A stretch of DNA of 64,000 nt from Isoetes taiwanensis (Eukaryota; Streptophyta; Lycopodiopsida; Isoetales; Isoetaceae), in contig JAJEKV010000183.1 in assembly GCA_021234155.1 (NCBI GenBank), forward strand, positions 248,001-312,000, read 5' to 3'. Each line of letters starts with the position of its first letter. Within the stretch, counting starts at the first letter, position 1. The notes under the pieces are model-generated. The model worked only from the letters and a program-made list of their open reading frames with translations. It did no database searches and was not told the origin of the DNA. This document shows positions 51,607 to 64,000 of this stretch, in pieces. The position numbers were made by a program, and so were the translations under genes.

Positions 51607-52550
51607 GCTGAAAGAAGATCATAAGAAGCACAGTTAGCGAAAGTAATGTGGACACTCAAGCTATTTCGACTGAGTGTGCTTGAAACTGAATACAAAGGCC
51701 AAACAAAACGGCGGGTCACAGTCCGAGGAGTTATGGCTATAGATTGGAGAACGGAATGCAACCTGCTGTTACGAAAAATTGAATGTAAAAAGCATCATGA
51801 TGCCTAGCATATTGGTGCCTGACATACAGCATATAACCATGATCACATCGTAGCATGTATAAAGAAATGACTAAGCCATCATCGTGCGAAGCTATTGTTT
51901 AAGAAGTTCTGGACTAACGACTTTCTTTTATTAGAATGTTAACGTAATATGATTTCCAGACAAGTTAATCAATCATATGTTGTTGTATGCATAATATACA
52001 GTGAATTGATGCCTTTTATCCCAACCTACATCAAACAAACATTTAACAGTATGAAATTGATTAATACTTATGTTATGTGTGGGTTTCTGGATACAAAACC
52101 TGTACCGTTACTGTTGCCTTCAGAGTTTCATCTTCTTTTATCTCCAAGAGCAAACATTTGTTTGTTCGCCAGAAGCAACGTATGGTCTAAAACAAAAAGC
52201 TAGCATATTAATACAACTGACAAAAAATAACGTGGACTAAGGACGCAATTAGTGAATACACTTCCCTTTGTATCCGACACCTTGACAACTGTAGGTGTTA
52301 AAACACAAAAATCTACTAAATATAACTGCCAGCTCTCTGTCTTAAAATAGCAAATACTATGGGAGCCGCCCATGAACATTTCAACACAGTTATTTCCATA
52401 GTTCTCCGCTGCCCAAATTCCAACAGATGAGCGCCTCACAGAATCAATCAGATGCCTCAGGTTATAGCATTGCTAATAGCTATGACTAAAATTACATGCT
52501 CCACCCATCGATTAATGTCTATTAACATCAAGAAATTGTTTTTTTTGCAG
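51607..52550. other. AT-rich spacer or intron
   Basis: No ORF of interest. It ends with a strong polypyrimidine tract and acceptor (TTGTTTTTTTTGCAG, 52536-52550) that defines the next exon, so part of it is probably intron. Confidence 0.4.
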
Positions 52551-53199
52551 GCAGAGAAGCTCTTGCGTCTGTTTTAGGCACCAGTGCTGGAGAAAATCTT
52601 ATACCTTCGATCACAAACTCACAATTTGATATGCCTGGCGTCAATCCCACTAACGTCAATCCCACTGGTAAGCTTTATAGAAGTAATTGTTCGACATCAT
52701 CATTACTGATAGCACAAAATTCCAGAGAACAAGACCCATGAACACGAAGACGCCCATCCAGGAAAAGGTATTTAGAAATTATCTATCTATCCTGCTGTTG
52801 ATTATACACTATTACATCTATTAATATTGCCTAATTCAAATTAAAACAGCATCTTCTCCGTCCGAACTCCCATCGGCTCCGCCTAATCAGAACAAAATTT
52901 CGGTCATAGCAGAATTGCCAAACTTCGAGAAGCTGCCATTTCAAACGGCCACAACACCTGTCCAGCTTGCACGTCTCAGGGCTTCCGGTCTGGCGAGTGA
53001 ATTGGGGTATGTTTTCCTTGAGCTAACTGAAATCCTTGAGGATTCCCGAATTCAAGCTAGTGGCATAGCCACAGAGCTAGGATGCACTCTCATCAGCTTG
53101 ATTCGAGCTGCTAACAGTTTAAAAAAATTGCAAAAATGCTTGAAACTCATGGATGTTAACAGCGCAGTAAACGAAGCATGCAAAAAACGAAAACTTTAA
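52551..53199 (+). CDS. 3' three exons of an unidentified gene, in-phase splicing
   Basis: Exons 52551-52667, 52726-52767 and 52850-53199 join in phase 1 at both introns (donors GTAAGC and GTATTT; acceptors CCAG and ACAG). They give an uninterrupted product ending ACKKRKL at TAA 53197-53199. The last exon is helical and Leu-rich (SELGYVFLELTEILEDSRIQ, CTLISLIRAANSLKKLQKCL) and contains an internal near-repeat, RASGLASELGYVFLELTEIL versus QASGIATELGCTLISLIRAA. The C-terminus KKRKL could act as a nuclear localisation signal. Upstream exons are not identified and the family is unknown to me. It ends 315 bp before the Helitron start codon and could be host sequence or an extra Helitron-carried gene. 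Confidence 0.5.
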
Positions 53200-53513
53200 G
53201 AAGTTTGTATCTGTTTATTAGGTCTGACTGTTTACCATATGTACATTGTATAATTTTCGCAATGTAATAGTGCTCCAGGGTTTTCCTACATGTTTCATAT
53301 TATAGTCTTGCATGGAGTCATTTGAAAATACTGTAATAACAAATTGAGCGAGAATGTCGATGAATTATACTTCGAATTAACTAAGCTAAACAATTATGCT
53401 TTAGACTAAATAAATTGTATCTAGATCACGTTTGGGTTATTTCTCGTCCACCATGTATATTAATCGAATAAAAAAATGATAGAAATTCATCTACAACTAC
53501 GCGATGTGAATAC

Positions 53514-56500
53514 ATGCGAAACTATCGAAAAAAACGCAGTGTACGCGAACGTGGATCGAACAACAAGTATGTCAATTCACATCATTGCAATCCTAAATAG
53601 ATATGCATACTAATGACCTATAATTAATTGGTCTTTTACATCTATGACAGAGATACCACGGATGGTGAACCTGGCAATGAACTTACTACACCGAGTAAAA
53701 AAAGAGGCCGCCCAAGGTATTTATCTAATTACTTCATTCATTGTTAATTTACGCAAGGTTACATATATGATTCATACACTAATTGAAAATTTTTATATAG
53801 AAAGCATACTGTCTCTCTATCTAAACACGATAAAAGCGCTGAAGCGAAGAAAAATAAACGCCTCAAGTTAGTATCTCGTCCTCTTTTCCTATTACAACTT
53901 ACTTCTCGACTAACGAGCTGGATATAGGAAAAGCAATGAAGATTCAATCAACCAAATCCAAGGTCAACTTACGATTACTAAAAAAAAGAGAGGTCGCCCT
54001 AGGTATGTTTCTAAAACCATTGTAATTATTTCATAATTTAAGACAAAGGATACTTAGCATTTACCATCTCTATGCAGAAAGGACAATACTCATACGAATA
54101 CTGGCACTCAGCCTAAACTCGATTTATGTAAAAGAAAGCGAGGCCGTCCTAGGTATTTACATGCTTCAACATTCATACATTCACGAAAGCTATAGTATAA
54201 CGTAAAGAAATTTTATAGAAAAACCGATGGACATACATCCAAGGATAGCCAAGCTTGCATTGATGTATCAACCAATCAAAACAAACCTCCTAGGTATGCA
54301 TTTCAACATTTCAACATTTGATATACATACGCTTATCTATGAAATGCATATCTAACTAGCAGTTTATTTATTTTTTATAGTGGCGATTATGCAAACTCGA
54401 CCATTCAAAACCAGCTACACCAAACTGATCAAACAAAAAATCATCCGAGGTATTTACATACTTCTAATTTCTATATTTCTCTAAAAACTATAACTCAAAA
54501 TAACAACATGAGATCTGCATATTGCTTATACTTTATTGAATAATGATAATAGGCATATGGTCCATTGTATTGACGAGGAAACTACCAGCGTCAACAAAAG
54601 GCAACGCACAAATTCCAAGTATGTTTACATTTAATCACTATTTTCACTTAGTCTATAGTCCCTTTTTACATGCAAATGTCATGTTTTTTTATTACTTCTT
54701 TTAATAATTCTGTCTTTATGTTCATTACTAGGACACAAATAAAATTCGTGGATACTAAATTAGATAGAATATCGAGCTTAACCACTAACTATACTACGCC
54801 CTCATCCAGCGAGCTTACAGTTGCTACAGCTGTAGACCCCTCTAATGCCACAACAGCATGCGAACATTGGCTAAAACAAATTGAAACCATGAATAAAATT
54901 CTTAGACCGCCAAATCACGAATTGCTAAGCTGGAGTAAACAATGTGATATATGTCACATTGAATTGCTAAACACTGAACGGCCTACTTTTTGTTGTAACA
55001 ATGGCCATAGGTTACTTCCACCACTTCAAACACTTCCTAATAAACTGAAAGAGTTATACGACATACCTGATTTCGCTAAAAACTCACGTATCATTAACAA
55101 CCTCTTCTGCTTCACTGCACTCGGTATTAAAGGAGATTTCATAAATCTAAAAATGCCATCATCAGTAGCCATCATGGGACGAACATACCATCGTCTTTTA
55201 TCTGCAGATGAACCTACTAGCACTTTACATTGGTACATATATGATGATAGCAGACGATATGATATCGCCGCTGAGAGACAAATTCCAGCTACCTGGATCA
55301 TGCAAGTAGCTTCCATATTACAATCCACAAACCCCTATACCCAAAAACTCAAAACAATCAAGCAGCTGCATTCTTCACCTGCCACATTAACCCTCGCTGA
55401 CCCCCCAGCATCAAATGAGATTGCTGCTATTATGCACGCAAATGACACTACCACAATAACACCAAGAACTGCATTATTTTGGATGCAAGTTAACCATCCC
55501 CCGATTTTTATAAGTATTCTTGACGCCGAATACGAACCTCTGCAATATCCCCTCTTCTACCCACATGGTACATTAGGATGGCATCCAAAAAATGAATTCA
55601 AAATGTCCCAGATTGATTGGTATCGAACAAGACTGTTGCATGAACCTCGTTTTCTGCAGCTTGGCCGTTTGTGTGGCGAATATCTAGTCGATATGTATTC
55701 AAGAGTTGAGGAGGAACGTCTTAACTATATTGCAACAGAAGGATTTCGACGAAATACTTTGCAACATGAAGAAGATTTTATTGACGATGAGGATGAAGAC
55801 ATTCGTCGTGGAATATTGCCAGCCTCATTTCTAGGCTGTAAACGATGGTGCGCTGTACAAATAGCTGACGCACTTGCGCTAGCAAGAGCAAAAGGAAGAC
55901 CAACCCTGTTTATAACAATGACAACAAATCCCAATTGGCCAGAGATCAAATCCAAACTGCAGTATGGTCAAAATGCATCAGACATTCCTATGATTGTTGT
56001 TCGTGCATGTCACGAAAGAGTCCAATACACAAAAGACATCATCCGAAAATACTTAGGTCCCATATCTTACATGATGCATGTCATTGAATTCCAGAAGCGT
56101 GGATTGCCACACGCACATATCGTCGTCAAAACCCAGCACGATATTCCAATCTCTATAATTGACCAACTCATTTCTGCAGAATTGCCAACGGATCCAGCAC
56201 TCAGATCATTAGTTGAAAAATACATGATTCATAGACATTCATCAAGATGCCTTAAAGACACTGGCAAATGTTGCTATAACTATCCAAAACCCCTCAATCC
56301 CACAACATACATTGACGAAAAAGGATACACACAATACAGAAGACGAACAGAAGCTGACGTTAATGTTGTACCATATATTCCATTTCTACTAAAAGAAATG
56401 GATTGTCACATATATGCAGATATTGCTTCAACAGTACATATATTCGCATACCTTTATGGATATATCTATAAAGGATTTGACACAACACGATTTCATATTA

Positions 56501-57456
56501 ACACTATTTCACAACAGCCAGAATCTCAATCACAAACCCAACCTTATGCCATAAACCTACCCGAAACTGCTACTCACGAAAAGAAACCCCAGCCAAGGAA
56601 TGAAATCCAAGACTACATCTCCGCACGTTATCTATCGTCCATGGAGGCTACCTGGAGAATCATGTCCTATCATATAACAGAAAAACACCCATCTGTAAAA
56701 TGTCTTCCTCTTCATCTAGAAGGACAAAACAGACAACGGTTTGCAAGAATATCAACAGCCATCGGACTTTCCACACTAGATAGCTACTTTCTTCGACCTC
56801 TTGATCCTATATTTGACTCTATGACTTATATAAATTACAATGAAAGTTATACATTTACTGTGTATAAATCAGACACACCATTGCGCCCTACTGATTACCT
56901 CGAACAACCGTCTCCAAACACTACACAATATATAGTACACAAACGAGCAAGAGGAGAGCTCGTTTGCAGAATACGGTTGCTACTTCCAAAAGTTGGAGAA
57001 GCATTCTATCTAAGAACAATACTACTCCATAAATCCGTTCGTTCATGGAACGATCTAAAAACCCACGAAGGCCATCACTATGCCACTTATCAAGAAACTG
57101 CACAAGCAATCGGACTAATTGCACCAGCAACCGAATCCATTAAAACAATGGACGAAGCCATATCTTACTTCCACACACCGTCACAACTTAGATTTCTTTT
57201 CGCACTCCTCATACTTGATAACAGCCCAACATTGGAACTCTGGAATACCTTTCAGGACCACTTGACAGCCGACTTTCTAGATCAATACCACGGAGACAAA
57301 CCCACTGCAGTCAATGAGACACTCTTAGCCATCAACAACATCTTAGTTCAACATGGAACAAATATCCAAGCCTTTGGACTACCAGTATACAATGCATTAT
57401 CTAGAGAAGTCCAGAATGAACTTAAAAAATTTCCTGACCATCAAACAAGGTTTAAA
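53514..57456 (+). CDS. Helitron Rep-helicase gene, 5' part (AT-hook exons and Rep domain)
   Basis: Predicted exons: 53514-53566, 53651-53716, 53801-53866, 53928-54002, 54078-54152, 54219-54293, 54381-54449, 54553-54618, then 54732 onward. All eight introns are phase 2 and the frame closes exactly (182 codons before exon 9). Exons 2, 4 and 5 end in an AT-hook (KKRGRP, KKKRGRP, KRKRGRP). Exon 9 encodes a Cys/His zinc region (CDICHIELLNTERPTFCC), the Helitron-like N-terminal domain, the HUH motif GLPHAHIVV (56101-56127) and the two-tyrosine motif YLYGYIYKGFD (about 56450). The frame is open until 57456, where a 5.6-kb element interrupts it; the stop at 57529 belongs to the insert. Rep nicks and joins DNA in rolling-circle-like transposition. 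Start ATG 53514 was chosen by phase. Confidence 0.88.
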
Positions 57457-57540
57457 ATGAAACGCACTTATTTAAGAAGTGCGTTTGGAAGATTCCTTCT
57501 GAAATTTTATAAAATTCTAAAATCCCTCTAAAAAGGGCCC

Positions 57541-58585: not shown

Positions 58586-59985
58586 TTCTAGACTGCATAT
58601 ATATATATACATATATATACAAGAAATTTAATGCGTCCTACGGTGCATGTTCGAGTTTTAGCATGTTCCTATGCTGCAAGTTCTTGTCGTGCCCTACATT
58701 CTAAAAGAATGTCTTGAGAATACTCTAAATTCATAGGTTCTCTAAGATTCTACCAAGGTTCTCTTGGAGGTTTCGTGGAGATTCCTCTAAATTTTATAAG
58801 ATTCCCTTAGATCCCTTTAGATTTTATGAGATTGGCTTAGGTTCCCTTACATTATATGAGATTCAAGGAGATATTCCCTTAGATACTCTAAGATTTCATC
58901 AACATTTTCCTAGATTGCCTTAGATTTTATGAAGATTCCCTTAGATCCTCTAGATTTTAAGAGATTCCCTTAGGCTTGTAAATATTTTCCTAGATTCTCT
59001 CACATTTTATGAGATTTTCTTAGATTCTGTCAGATTCTCCTGGATTGCTTTACATTCTAGAACTTTTTAGAACATTCTAAGGTTTCTGGAACATTCTAAT
59101 ACTTTCTGGAATATTCTGAGACTTTCAAAATATCCTAGAACTTTCTGGAAGTATTTCCCTAGATTCTCTTACCTTCCCATGGATTCCTACATTCTCGAAC
59201 ATTCCAGAACCTATTAGAACAATTTGAAACTTTCTGGAAGAATTTTCATAGATTCCCCACTTTAGGACACTCTAGGAAATATTCATCTCCCTTCTCGAGT
59301 ATTATAAAATTGTAGCTTCAGATTATGTTCTAGAATTTTCTAGAATATTTTGGAACTTTCTAGAAGATTCTAGAACTTTCTAGAGGCTTCCAGAACATTC
59401 TAGAACTCTTTTGAACTAGTTAGAATGTTATACTGCATTTTATCTTAATTAGATTGTTACCCTTAAGTATGTTTGAAACATAAATTATTCATAGAATTAA
59501 TGCTTGGTCTAGGGGTTAGAATGGGGGGCTGGGGGGGGTCAATGACCAGGGTTCAAATCCCCCACACAACATAAAAATTTTAAAAGCCTTTCCTTAAAGG
59601 ATGAGCATTCAATGTGGGCCGTAGGATCTTGGACCCGATCAAGGGTCGAGATCATGCCATGTGGCAAAAATCTAAAGCAACATGAGCCGTAGGATCCTAG
59701 ATCGACGATCAAGATCAAGAACAACCTGGACCATAGGATCGATTACATATAATTCCCAAAGCCATGTGCACCGTAGGATGTGTCCCAAAGCAATGTGAGT
59801 AGTAGGATCTCGGACCCAGATGATCGGGATCAAATCAACACGGGACCGTAGGATCGCTTACATATATAGTCTATACACAAACTCCCAAGCCATCTAGGCC
59901 GTAGGATACGTCCCAAAGCCACGTGAGCCGTAGGATCTCGGATCAACGGTCGGATTTATGAGGACAAACATAAGAACATATATAT
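58586..59985 (+). repeat. Left arm of ~1.4-kb inverted repeat
   Basis: Order: TATATATACAAGAAA..TTAATGCGTCCTACGG, TTAGCATGTTCCTA, a long block of degenerate ATTCTAGAAC/AGATTCCCTTAG repeats (58700-59440), a tRNA-like element (59506-59562), then repeats of (C/G)CGTAGGATC(T/C) with GATCGACGATC (59600-59960), and AAACATAAGAACATATATATAT. The right arm 60085-61500 carries the same blocks in reverse order and complement. The spacer of about 100 bp contains two palindrome copies. Confidence 0.85.
59506..59562 (+). repeat. tRNA-like pol III promoter element, copy 1
   Basis: A box TGGTCTAGGGGTTAG (59506-59520) and B box GGGTTCAAATCCC (59550-59562), spaced as in tRNA genes, but acceptor and anticodon stems do not form. 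Best read as a tRNA-derived SINE-like head rather than a tRNA gene. Confidence 0.6.
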
Positions 59986-62499: not shown

Positions 62500-63045
62500 C
62501 CAGAAATTTATTTTGAAGACGTTATGTCCACGCATTGTCATCGTGGTATACATAAGTCTATAGCAAGACGGATGAGCAAATAAGAGCAAGTATATAAGAT
62601 TTAAGAGCGGCGTCTTCGACTCCAACTTGCGCTTCAAAGTGTAAGTTTGTTCAATGAGGCATACTTTCATGTGAAAATATTTGCTTCAATGAGGCAATGT
62701 CAAAATGTGTTGCATTTTTTTACTGATTTTGTTCATAGTTTTGTCTTGATTTGGAAAACTTTGAATAAAATACCTTTTGGCACTTTAGTGTGCTTCTTTG
62801 TTTTTTTCAATGTCTATTTTGTTTAGTTTTTGAAAATATTACTATTTCGCAAACCAAACTAGGGGGGCAAAAAAGGGATGTCAAATAATTTTGAATGGAA
62901 GCTAAGTTCACACCCCCCTCCAAAATGATGCCTAAAATTTTTAAATTGTCACACTTGTCACAAATATACCACAAAAAGGGACATTTTTGGGGGGATTTTA
63001 GGGAATCTTTCAAAGATTCCTTTTGAAGTGCGTTTTGAGCAAATT
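62500..63045. other. Right unique part of the nested element
   Basis: AT-rich without a gene. It contains ATTTGCTTCAATGAGGCA-type duplicates (about 62650-62700) and a subterminal GAATCTTTCAAAGATTC hairpin (63003-63019) followed by AAGTGCGTTTT, partly repeating the terminal sequence. Confidence 0.4.
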
Positions 63046-63063
63046 AGTGCGTTTCATTTTAAA

Positions 63064-64000
63064 CTTTGTTATCAGCAATATCTTGCTAAAGCCTCAGCCA
63101 TGTTCGATAGTATGAATACAAATCAGATATCTATCTACACTCATATCCGTAATCTTATCGATAATGCACAACCATATAACCCAATCTTTATCTATGGAAA
63201 AGCCGGAACCGGAAAAACTTACCTTCTCAACGCAATCTCCCTCTACATACGAGGAAAATACCAAATAGTTTTACCATGTGCAACAACAGCACTCGCATCT
63301 CTTCTATATCCTGCGGGCAGAACTGCACATTCCCTATTCCAGATACCTGTTATTGAGAACAATATCGGTATACATTCACTACTCGATCCACATTCACCAA
63401 GAGCAACACTAATTAGCCAAGCAACTGCTATCATATGGGATGAATTTCCCATGGCAAACAAAGCAGTCATAGAAGCAGTCGATATATTGTTGCAAAAAAT
63501 AACAAATACAAGCCTACCATTTGGAGGAAAGTTGTTCATAGCAGCAGGAGATTTTAGACAAATTGCTCCTATCGTCAAGAGAGCAGGCAAAACTGCAACC
63601 ATTAACGCTTCCATTAGATCATCACATCTATGGCACCACTTCCAAGTCTTGCAACTCAACGAACCGGTAAGAAATGCTAAAGACACCGACCTTATACAAT
63701 TTATTGATGCCATAGGAGAAGGAAACCTACTCACTAACATTCCATTAACACTATTCAAAACAACTTACAGCCTTGAAGACGCTGTCAGCTTCTTATACAA
63801 CACATATATCCTTTTAACACCCGAAAAATGCGAAAAGAGAGCATTCTTATCGCCTAAAAATATTACAGTTGATGCATTCAACAACATAATTTTACAAATG
63901 CTCTCAGGAATACCCAAATTATATTTTAGCGTGGACAGGCTTACAGAAAATGATCAAACTATAGAAGATCATCCAATGGCCACAACTGACTTTCTTAACG
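63064..64000 (+). CDS. Helitron helicase domain (PIF1-like), continues past the window
   Basis: Open frame continuing the Rep ORF after the nested element: LCYQQYLAKASAMFDSMN, Walker A GKAGTGKTYLLNAI (from 63196), LPCATTALASLL (motif Ia), Walker B IIWDEFPM (63430-63453), AAGDFRQIAPI (motif II/III region) and LQLNEPVRN. These are SF1B PIF1 helicase motifs with the Helitron-typical spacing. The helicase unwinds the transposing strand. No stop codon occurs before the window end; motifs IV to VI and the C-terminus lie outside. Confidence 0.9.

What the first reader, a model, noticed from the sequence alone, without database searches (positions are those of the whole stretch)
53514..54736. Ladder of symmetric phase-2 AT-hook mini-exons at the start of a Helitron Rep gene
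Eight predicted small exons (53, 66, 66, 75, 75, 75, 69, 66 nt) precede the Rep exon, all separated by ~60-105-nt phase-2 introns. The internal ones can be added or lost without breaking the frame. Three end in an AT-hook core (RGRP) and the others end in degenerate versions (…P, PP, HP before the same split Arg codon). Exon ends (CC(A/T)AG|GTAT) are alike. This suggests growth by tandem exon duplication, giving a Helitron transposase with a tunable minor-groove-binding tail. Helitron Rep genes are usually described with few or no introns in this region.
Basis: partly seen in the sequence, partly recalled or inferred. Interest (0 to 1): 0.82.

Follow-up and report, generated by a model that had tools for sequence, protein, structure and literature searches.

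The report
Jumping gene's growing DNA-grip exon ladder
A plant rolling-circle jumping gene seems to carry, at the start of its transposase gene, a row of tiny exons, several of which encode one AT-rich-DNA-binding hook each, and related copies in the same genome have gained and lost such exons in steps that keep the reading frame.

Summary
At 53514-54618 eight short exons with GT/AG sites, all joined in phase 2, read into the Helitron Rep exon (54732-57531) without a stop. The joined N-terminus scores three Pfam AT-hooks. Shuffles of the upstream DNA give almost no such chain. In exons 1-5 of four related copies, dN/dS is 0.27-0.61 over six pairs; hook codons differ in 13 of 120 amino-acid comparisons, linkers in 188 of 288. 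RGRP codons lie upstream of Rep in 16 of 21 Rep-selected ladder-clade copies (and 4 of 4 chosen by ladder DNA), and in 0 of 6 distant copies. Weak points: no transcripts, introns are about as alike as exons, exons 6-8 are poorly kept, exon 1 may start earlier, DNA binding is inferred. AT-hook transposases and multi-exon plant Helitrons are known; my searches found no paper on an exon-encoded AT-hook array in a Helitron.

The parts
52825..53199 (+). last open frame (ending in CKKRKL and a stop) of a probable accessory gene of the same Helitron; no Pfam match
   Evidence: tblastn of its last 114 aa: 78-86% identity upstream of the ladder in L001, L002, L004; weaker (35-61%) matches in L033, L005, L014; no Pfam match
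53514..53566 (+). exon 1 as proposed (MRNYRKKRSVRERGSNN); may instead be the 3' part of an internal exon starting about 53483
   Evidence: frame and donor; aligned copies L001, L002, L004; upstream codons and acceptor alike in four copies
53651..53716 (+). mini-exon 2, ends KKRGRP (AT-hook)
53801..53866 (+). mini-exon 3, ends KNKRL (KNKRP in L002)
53928..54002 (+). mini-exon 4, ends KKKRGRP (AT-hook)
54078..54152 (+). mini-exon 5, ends KRKRGRP (AT-hook); two tandem versions in L003 (75 and 81 nt)
54219..54293 (+). mini-exon 6, ends NKPP; frameshifted in L001 and L002, absent from L004
54381..54449 (+). mini-exon 7, ends KNHP; absent from L001, L002 and L004, a possible counterpart in L003
54553..54618 (+). 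mini-exon 8, ends KRQRTNS
54732..57531 (+). exon 9: zinc-finger-like Cys cluster (by eye), Rep (HUH) domain with HAH and YLYGY, and the part after it
   Evidence: PF14214; Helraiser alignment
62929..63999 (+). PIF1-type helicase frame running off the window, about 5.4 kb after the Rep frame ends; this copy looks interrupted
   Evidence: PF05970 E 1.3e-52; many relatives of the Rep lie in single frames of about 1,000-1,640 aa

Best explanation
This is the 5' part of a Helitron transposase (RepHel) gene. Its N-terminal tail is encoded by a ladder of symmetric phase-2 mini-exons. The typical unit is a fast-changing, probably disordered linker followed by one AT-hook (KKRGRP, with the next Arg codon split by the intron, AG|R). 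Because the units have phase 2 at both ends, unequal exchange or replication slippage that duplicates or deletes an exon with its intron keeps the frame, so elements gain and lose hooks. Shown by sequence: gene structure, coding constraint, hook conservation, gain and loss among copies, tandem repeats of exon-intron stretches. Inferred: that the exons are spliced as drawn, the mechanism of duplication, and that the hooks grip the minor groove of AT-rich DNA and hold the transposase at AT-rich target sites or transposon ends, adding double-strand affinity to the single-strand-cutting Rep core.
For: Nine-exon frame; null of the chain search; three AT-hook matches, PF02178 E 5e-6. Exons 1-5 alone, all six pairs of window, L001, L002, L004: dN/dS 0.27-0.61, p from 2.7e-7 to 0.068; substitutions at codon positions 1, 2, 3 are 210, 162, 250 (pairs not independent). 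L012/L019: 0.33 over five of six mini-exons, no p computed. Hook codons differ in 13 of 120 comparisons, the rest of exons 2, 4 and 5 in 188 of 288. Extra 51-nt KKIGRP exon in L002 and L004; two in-frame exon-5 versions in L003. Tandem repeats: L003 146 nt apart (128 nt, 88%), L006 333 nt apart (234 nt, 81%), L010 726 nt apart (300 nt, 92%) with an inner 286-nt spacing, L009 about 700 nt apart (146 nt 79%, 91 nt 86%). Window units 2/4, 2/5, 4/5, 5/6 and 5/7 align better than each of 400 shuffles. RGRP upstream in 16 of 21 Rep-selected ladder-clade copies and 0 of 6 distant ones (tree); on the antisense strand one search found one site in all 26 sequences. Helraiser prefers AT-rich surroundings for insertion and needs its N-terminal domain to bind DNA (PMC4778049, passages).
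Against: No RNA evidence. Introns are about as alike as exons: exons 1-5 0.66-0.71, cores of introns 1-4 0.61-0.72 over six pairs; in L012/L019 introns (0.91-0.97) are if anything more alike than mini-exons (424 of 457, 0.93). Exons 6-8 are not maintained in the aligned relatives: exon 6 frameshifted in L001 and L002, exon 7 absent from L001, L002 and L004, exon 8 with a stop in L001 and a gap that is no multiple of three in L004; exon 5 of L004 has a stop and no AG acceptor. The extra exon is frameshifted and lacks its donor in L001, and has a GC donor in L004. No RGRP upstream in L018, L039, L041, L044, L045. The chain search found nothing in L008, L014, L015, L033 and L042, which do have RGRP. 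The window copy looks interrupted.
Confidence: 0.75

Rival explanations
1. The ladder is a captured piece of a host AT-hook gene, taken up by an ancestral Helitron and later duplicated; it is cargo rather than part of the transposase.
For: Helitrons capture gene fragments (start of the abstract of PMC4778049). Of the 11 hook-plus-donor sites outside the window and L001-L004, four had extensive Rep matches in the fetched stretch (L030, L032, L033, L034), one a small Rep fragment (L038) and six none, so such sites also occur elsewhere.
Against: Ladder and Rep are in one frame joined by a phase-2 junction in the window and L002; hook-bearing copies lie in both main branches of the clade, and hooks stay while linkers change. 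Capture at the origin of the clade is not excluded; no host donor gene was sought.
Confidence: 0.12
2. The short exons are real coding sequence, but exon number is neutral: the phase-2 design only tolerates duplications, and hook number has no consequence.
For: Exons 6-8 decay in relatives; linkers are poorly conserved.
Against: Hook codons are conserved between copies 0.58-1.16 synonymous changes per site apart, so at least some hooks matter.
Confidence: 0.3
3. The mini-exons are chance open stretches upstream of a Rep gene that starts in exon 9.
For: No transcript data; intron and exon DNA are about equally alike among copies.
Against: Shuffle null, frame and hook conservation in relatives, genome-wide hook-plus-donor pattern found 21 times against 0 for the reversed pattern.
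Confidence: 0.03

Closest known systems
Helraiser (bat Helitron transposase, PDB 7lcc)
   Same: Rep homology over two stretches, HUH (LPHAHI) and two-Tyr (YLFKYIYKG against YLYGYIYKG) motifs; a DNA-binding N-terminal domain with zinc-finger-like motif before Rep (PMC4778049, passages)
   Different: The passages seen on Helraiser mention no AT-hooks; here an exon-encoded AT-hook array precedes the rest
Wheat Helitron Feng8 (FENG8 transposase)
   Same: Multi-exon plant Helitron transposase (seven exons) with 264 mostly disordered residues at its N-terminus, before a zinc-finger-like motif (PMC13286980, passages)
   Different: 'AT-hook' does not occur in the main text of that paper; no ladder of equal-phase exons is described in the passages seen
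Sleeping Beauty (Tc1/mariner) transposase
   Same: AT-hook motif (GRRR) in the DNA-binding region of a transposase (PMC7827188, passages)
   Different: One hook in a DDE transposase, not an array of exon-encoded hooks
HMGA and AHL proteins (recalled)
   Same: AT-hooks of the RGRP type in a flexible chain
   Different: Host chromatin proteins, not joined to Rep; no comparison run here

Membership tests
Helitron (RepHel) | Helitron-type Rep with HUH and two-Tyr motifs | tested here: met
   PF14214 E 1.3e-34; Helraiser E 2.2e-63 with HAH and YLYGY aligned
Helitron (RepHel) | PIF1-type helicase on the same strand downstream, in one protein with Rep | tested here: inconclusive
   PF05970 at 62929-63999, about 5.4 kb after the Rep frame ends in this copy; L030 has Rep and helicase matches adjoining
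Helitron (RepHel) | 5'-TC and CTRR-3' ends with a hairpin, insertion between A and T | not tested
   element ends were not mapped
AT-hook motif | RGRP core in a basic context, Pfam PF02178 above its cut-off | tested here: met
   26.2 bits against cut-off 17.4, three stretches
AT-hook motif | binding to the minor groove of AT-rich DNA | not testable with these tools
   needs a binding assay
Symmetric-exon repeat gene | same phase at both ends of each repeat exon and copy-number change in relatives | tested here: met
   (sequence only; no transcripts)

The most novel reading that the evidence does not exclude
A transposase that evolves by an exon accordion: Helitron lineages raise or lower their hold on AT-rich chromatin by adding and dropping exon-encoded AT-hooks, possibly with alternative splicing making several hook numbers from one element, so that target choice or replication success is adjusted by exon count.
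Probability: 0.3. Interest if true: 0.75.

Novelty: new variant of a known kind. Interest (0 to 1): 0.6.

Why it matters
It shows, in several elements of one genome, exon gain and loss inside a selfish gene, with a clear rule that lets it happen: the units are phase 2 at both ends. That makes exon number a trait that can be counted and compared with copy number, age and insertion sites of the same elements. It also gives the poorly understood N-terminal tail of Helitron transposases a likely job, gripping AT-rich DNA.

Tried and rejected
A first exon-chain search that demanded an ATG start exon gave doubtful chains for several copies and was replaced by one that allows any internal start; however the 20-nt start exons it proposed in L006, L009, L011, L012 and L019 look alike in sequence. 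A first set of hand-typed exon coordinates was shifted by one base for some exons and gave a broken frame; corrected. Homology among the window's introns alone is weak: one of 28 pairs at p = 0.02. The dN/dS included the first 159 nt of exon 9 and, where its gaps fitted, exon 8 (0.50, 0.41, 0.38 against the window); it was redone for exons 1-5 alone. Rfam had no match at gathering score. Pfam had no match for five other open frames upstream. Papers: seven hold both 'Helitron' and 'AT-hook' (listing; passages of one, PMC7827188), none with either term in the title and none seen to concern AT-hooks of Helitrons; 'Helitron' with 'AT hook' gave none; 'Helitron' with 'exon duplication', 'transposase' and 'intron' gave one paper, on spider toxins; passages on introns were also read in PMC6544945 and PMC5148889. 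The library lacks most subscription papers. The plant or alga reading rests on rbcL frames; that the AT-rich spacers look like a bryophyte plastid is recall, not a test. The tree was rooted by choice on L020-L025, its support values were not printed, and L002, whose Rep is damaged, has a very long branch. Dropped rows: L030 and L038 were left out of the chain search because their Rep match starts late; L003 and L005 had no Rep match in the fetched stretch; for L003 a Rep begins about 4 kb after its hook exon, just past the fetched stretch; one of six mini-exons was left out of the L012/L019 comparison because it is shortened in L012. The duplicate loci and 15 beyond those fetched were not examined.

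Full report
What is there. The window lies in a 1.66-Gb genome that holds full-length rbcL frames and so is taken to be a plant or alga. At 53514-54618 eight short exons lead into a large exon at 54732-57531. The large exon is a Helitron Rep: PF14214 at E 1.3e-34 and the bat transposase Helraiser at E 2.2e-63, with the HUH and two-tyrosine motifs aligned. A PIF1 helicase frame begins at 62929 on the same strand, about 5.4 kb further on, so this copy is probably interrupted. The joined N-terminus matches the AT-hook family PF02178 in three stretches, 26.2 bits against a cut-off of 17.4.

More than chance. An exon-chain search with splice-site and amino-acid models scored the window at 72.4 with eight exons, while 12 dinucleotide shuffles reached at most 1.9. 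The window was part of the training set, so the copies outside it are the fairer test: L034 48.4, L002 45.3, L009 44.1, L032 32.1, L011 31.1, L001 29.1, with null maxima of 0 except 5.4 for L001. The largest null score in any locus was 16.1 with two exons (L006, itself 61.5), so low-scoring chains such as those of L013, L017, L025, L040, L041 and L045 prove little. A genome-wide pattern for KRGRP-type codons followed at once by a GTAT donor was found 21 times, the reversed pattern never. Ten of the 21 lie in the window or in L001-L004. The other 11 were all fetched: four have extensive Rep matches downstream (L030, L032, L033, L034), one a small fragment (L038), and six none in the fetched stretch.

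Coding constraint. In the aligned copies L001, L002 and L004, exons 1 to 5 keep their frame; the only gap in them is one of 6 nt in exon 2 of L001, but exon 5 of L004 has a stop and has lost its AG acceptor. For exons 1-5 alone dN/dS against the window is 0.50, 0.27 and 0.30, and over all six pairs of the four copies 0.27-0.61 with p from 2.7e-7 to 0.068. The close pair L012/L019 gives 0.33 for five mini-exons and 0.34 for exon 9. The six pairs have 210, 162 and 250 substitutions at codon positions 1, 2 and 3; the pairs are not independent. The last seven codons of exons 2, 4 and 5, the hook, differ in 13 of 120 amino-acid comparisons, the rest of these exons in 188 of 288. The hook is what is kept; the linker is free to change. 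Against this, plain DNA identity does not set exons apart from introns: 0.66-0.71 in exons 1-5 and 0.61-0.72 in the cores of introns 1-4, and 0.93 against 0.91-0.97 in L012/L019.

Gain and loss of exons. L002 and L004 carry another exon between the window's exons 2 and 3: 51 nt, phase 2 at both ends, ending KKIGRP, with a GT donor in L002 and a GC donor in L004; L001 has a 52-nt frameshifted remnant without a donor. L003 has two adjacent versions of exon 5, of 75 and 81 nt and both open, ending RGHP and RGRP; 128 nt of exon and intron repeat at a spacing of 146 nt with 88% identity. L004 lacks exons 6 and 7. In the sister group, L006 repeats 234 nt at a spacing of 333 nt (81%), L010 300 and 223 nt at 726-727 nt (92%) with four copies of a hook-bearing 82-nt stretch, and L009 146 and 91 nt at about 700 nt (79%, 86%). 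Peptide searches show that the sister group's exons belong to a few types, some ending in a hook and one carrying a RRKYxxEYxARKKLK-like motif; exon 1 of the window, if read from the acceptor near 53483, resembles the latter type by eye. Inside the window, exon-plus-intron units 2/4, 2/5, 4/5, 5/6 and 5/7 align better than each of 400 shuffles, but introns alone do not clearly.

Distribution. Among copies chosen by Rep similarity, RGRP codons lie upstream of Rep in 13 of 14 (L006-L019, not L018) and in 3 of 7 further ones (L040, L042, L043; not L039, L041, L044, L045): 16 of 21. The four close copies L001-L004, chosen by similarity to the ladder DNA itself, all have it, which is no independent evidence. 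Copies chosen by the hook pattern (L028-L038) and L005 are not counted. On the antisense strand one RGRP run was found in the 26 sequences. In the more distant group (53-55% identity in Rep) it is found in 0 of 6 (L020-L025); in four of these the open frame runs 114-279 codons upstream of the Rep match, in L021 and L022 94 and 22 codons. The tree, rooted on that distant group, has the ladder copies in one clade with two main branches, both with hooks, so the ladder may have arisen once at its base; branch supports were not printed.

How it probably works. Helraiser needs its N-terminal domain to bind DNA and prefers AT-rich surroundings for insertion (PMC4778049, passages). The wheat transposase FENG8 has seven exons and 264 mostly disordered residues at its N-terminus (PMC13286980, passages). 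The simplest reading is that here this loose N-terminal tail has become a string of AT-hooks that holds the enzyme on AT-rich duplex DNA, at targets or at transposon ends. Phase-2 ends let exon number change by tandem duplication or deletion. The structure and the changes are shown by sequence; splicing, binding and any benefit of hook number are inferred.

Limits. There is no RNA evidence. Exons 6-8 are weakly supported by relatives. Five of 21 Rep-selected clade copies show no RGRP upstream, and the chain search missed ladders in copies that have RGRP (L008, L014, L015, L033, L042). First looks saw 4,744 Rep candidates by protein, of which 49 were scored, so the copies studied are a small, best-matching sample. 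Only this one genome could be searched for eukaryotic relatives. The statement that I found no report of such an array rests.

Noticed in passing
window 52526-53199: A probable gene just upstream (last frame 52825-53199) ends about 315 nt before the ladder; its last 114 residues are 78-86% conserved upstream of the ladder in L001, L002 and L004, so it looks like a second gene of the element.
   Followed up: partly
L006, L009, L011, L012, L019: These sister Helitrons share a predicted 20-nt first exon, ATG plus 17 nt, that ends in phase 2 before the ladder.
   Followed up: partly
L001:1138-2100: A tandem duplication with a period of about 580 nt repeats the end of the accessory gene and the start of exon 1.
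   Followed up: no
window 58600-59450: A long stretch of degenerate repeats of the kind GATTCCCTTAGA / TTCTAGAA lies between the Rep and helicase frames (seen).
   Followed up: no
L028, L029, L031, L035, L036, L037: Hook-plus-donor sites without Rep homology in the fetched stretch; L028 and L029 have the same site letters, as have L035 and L038; they may belong to other elements or host genes.
   Followed up: no
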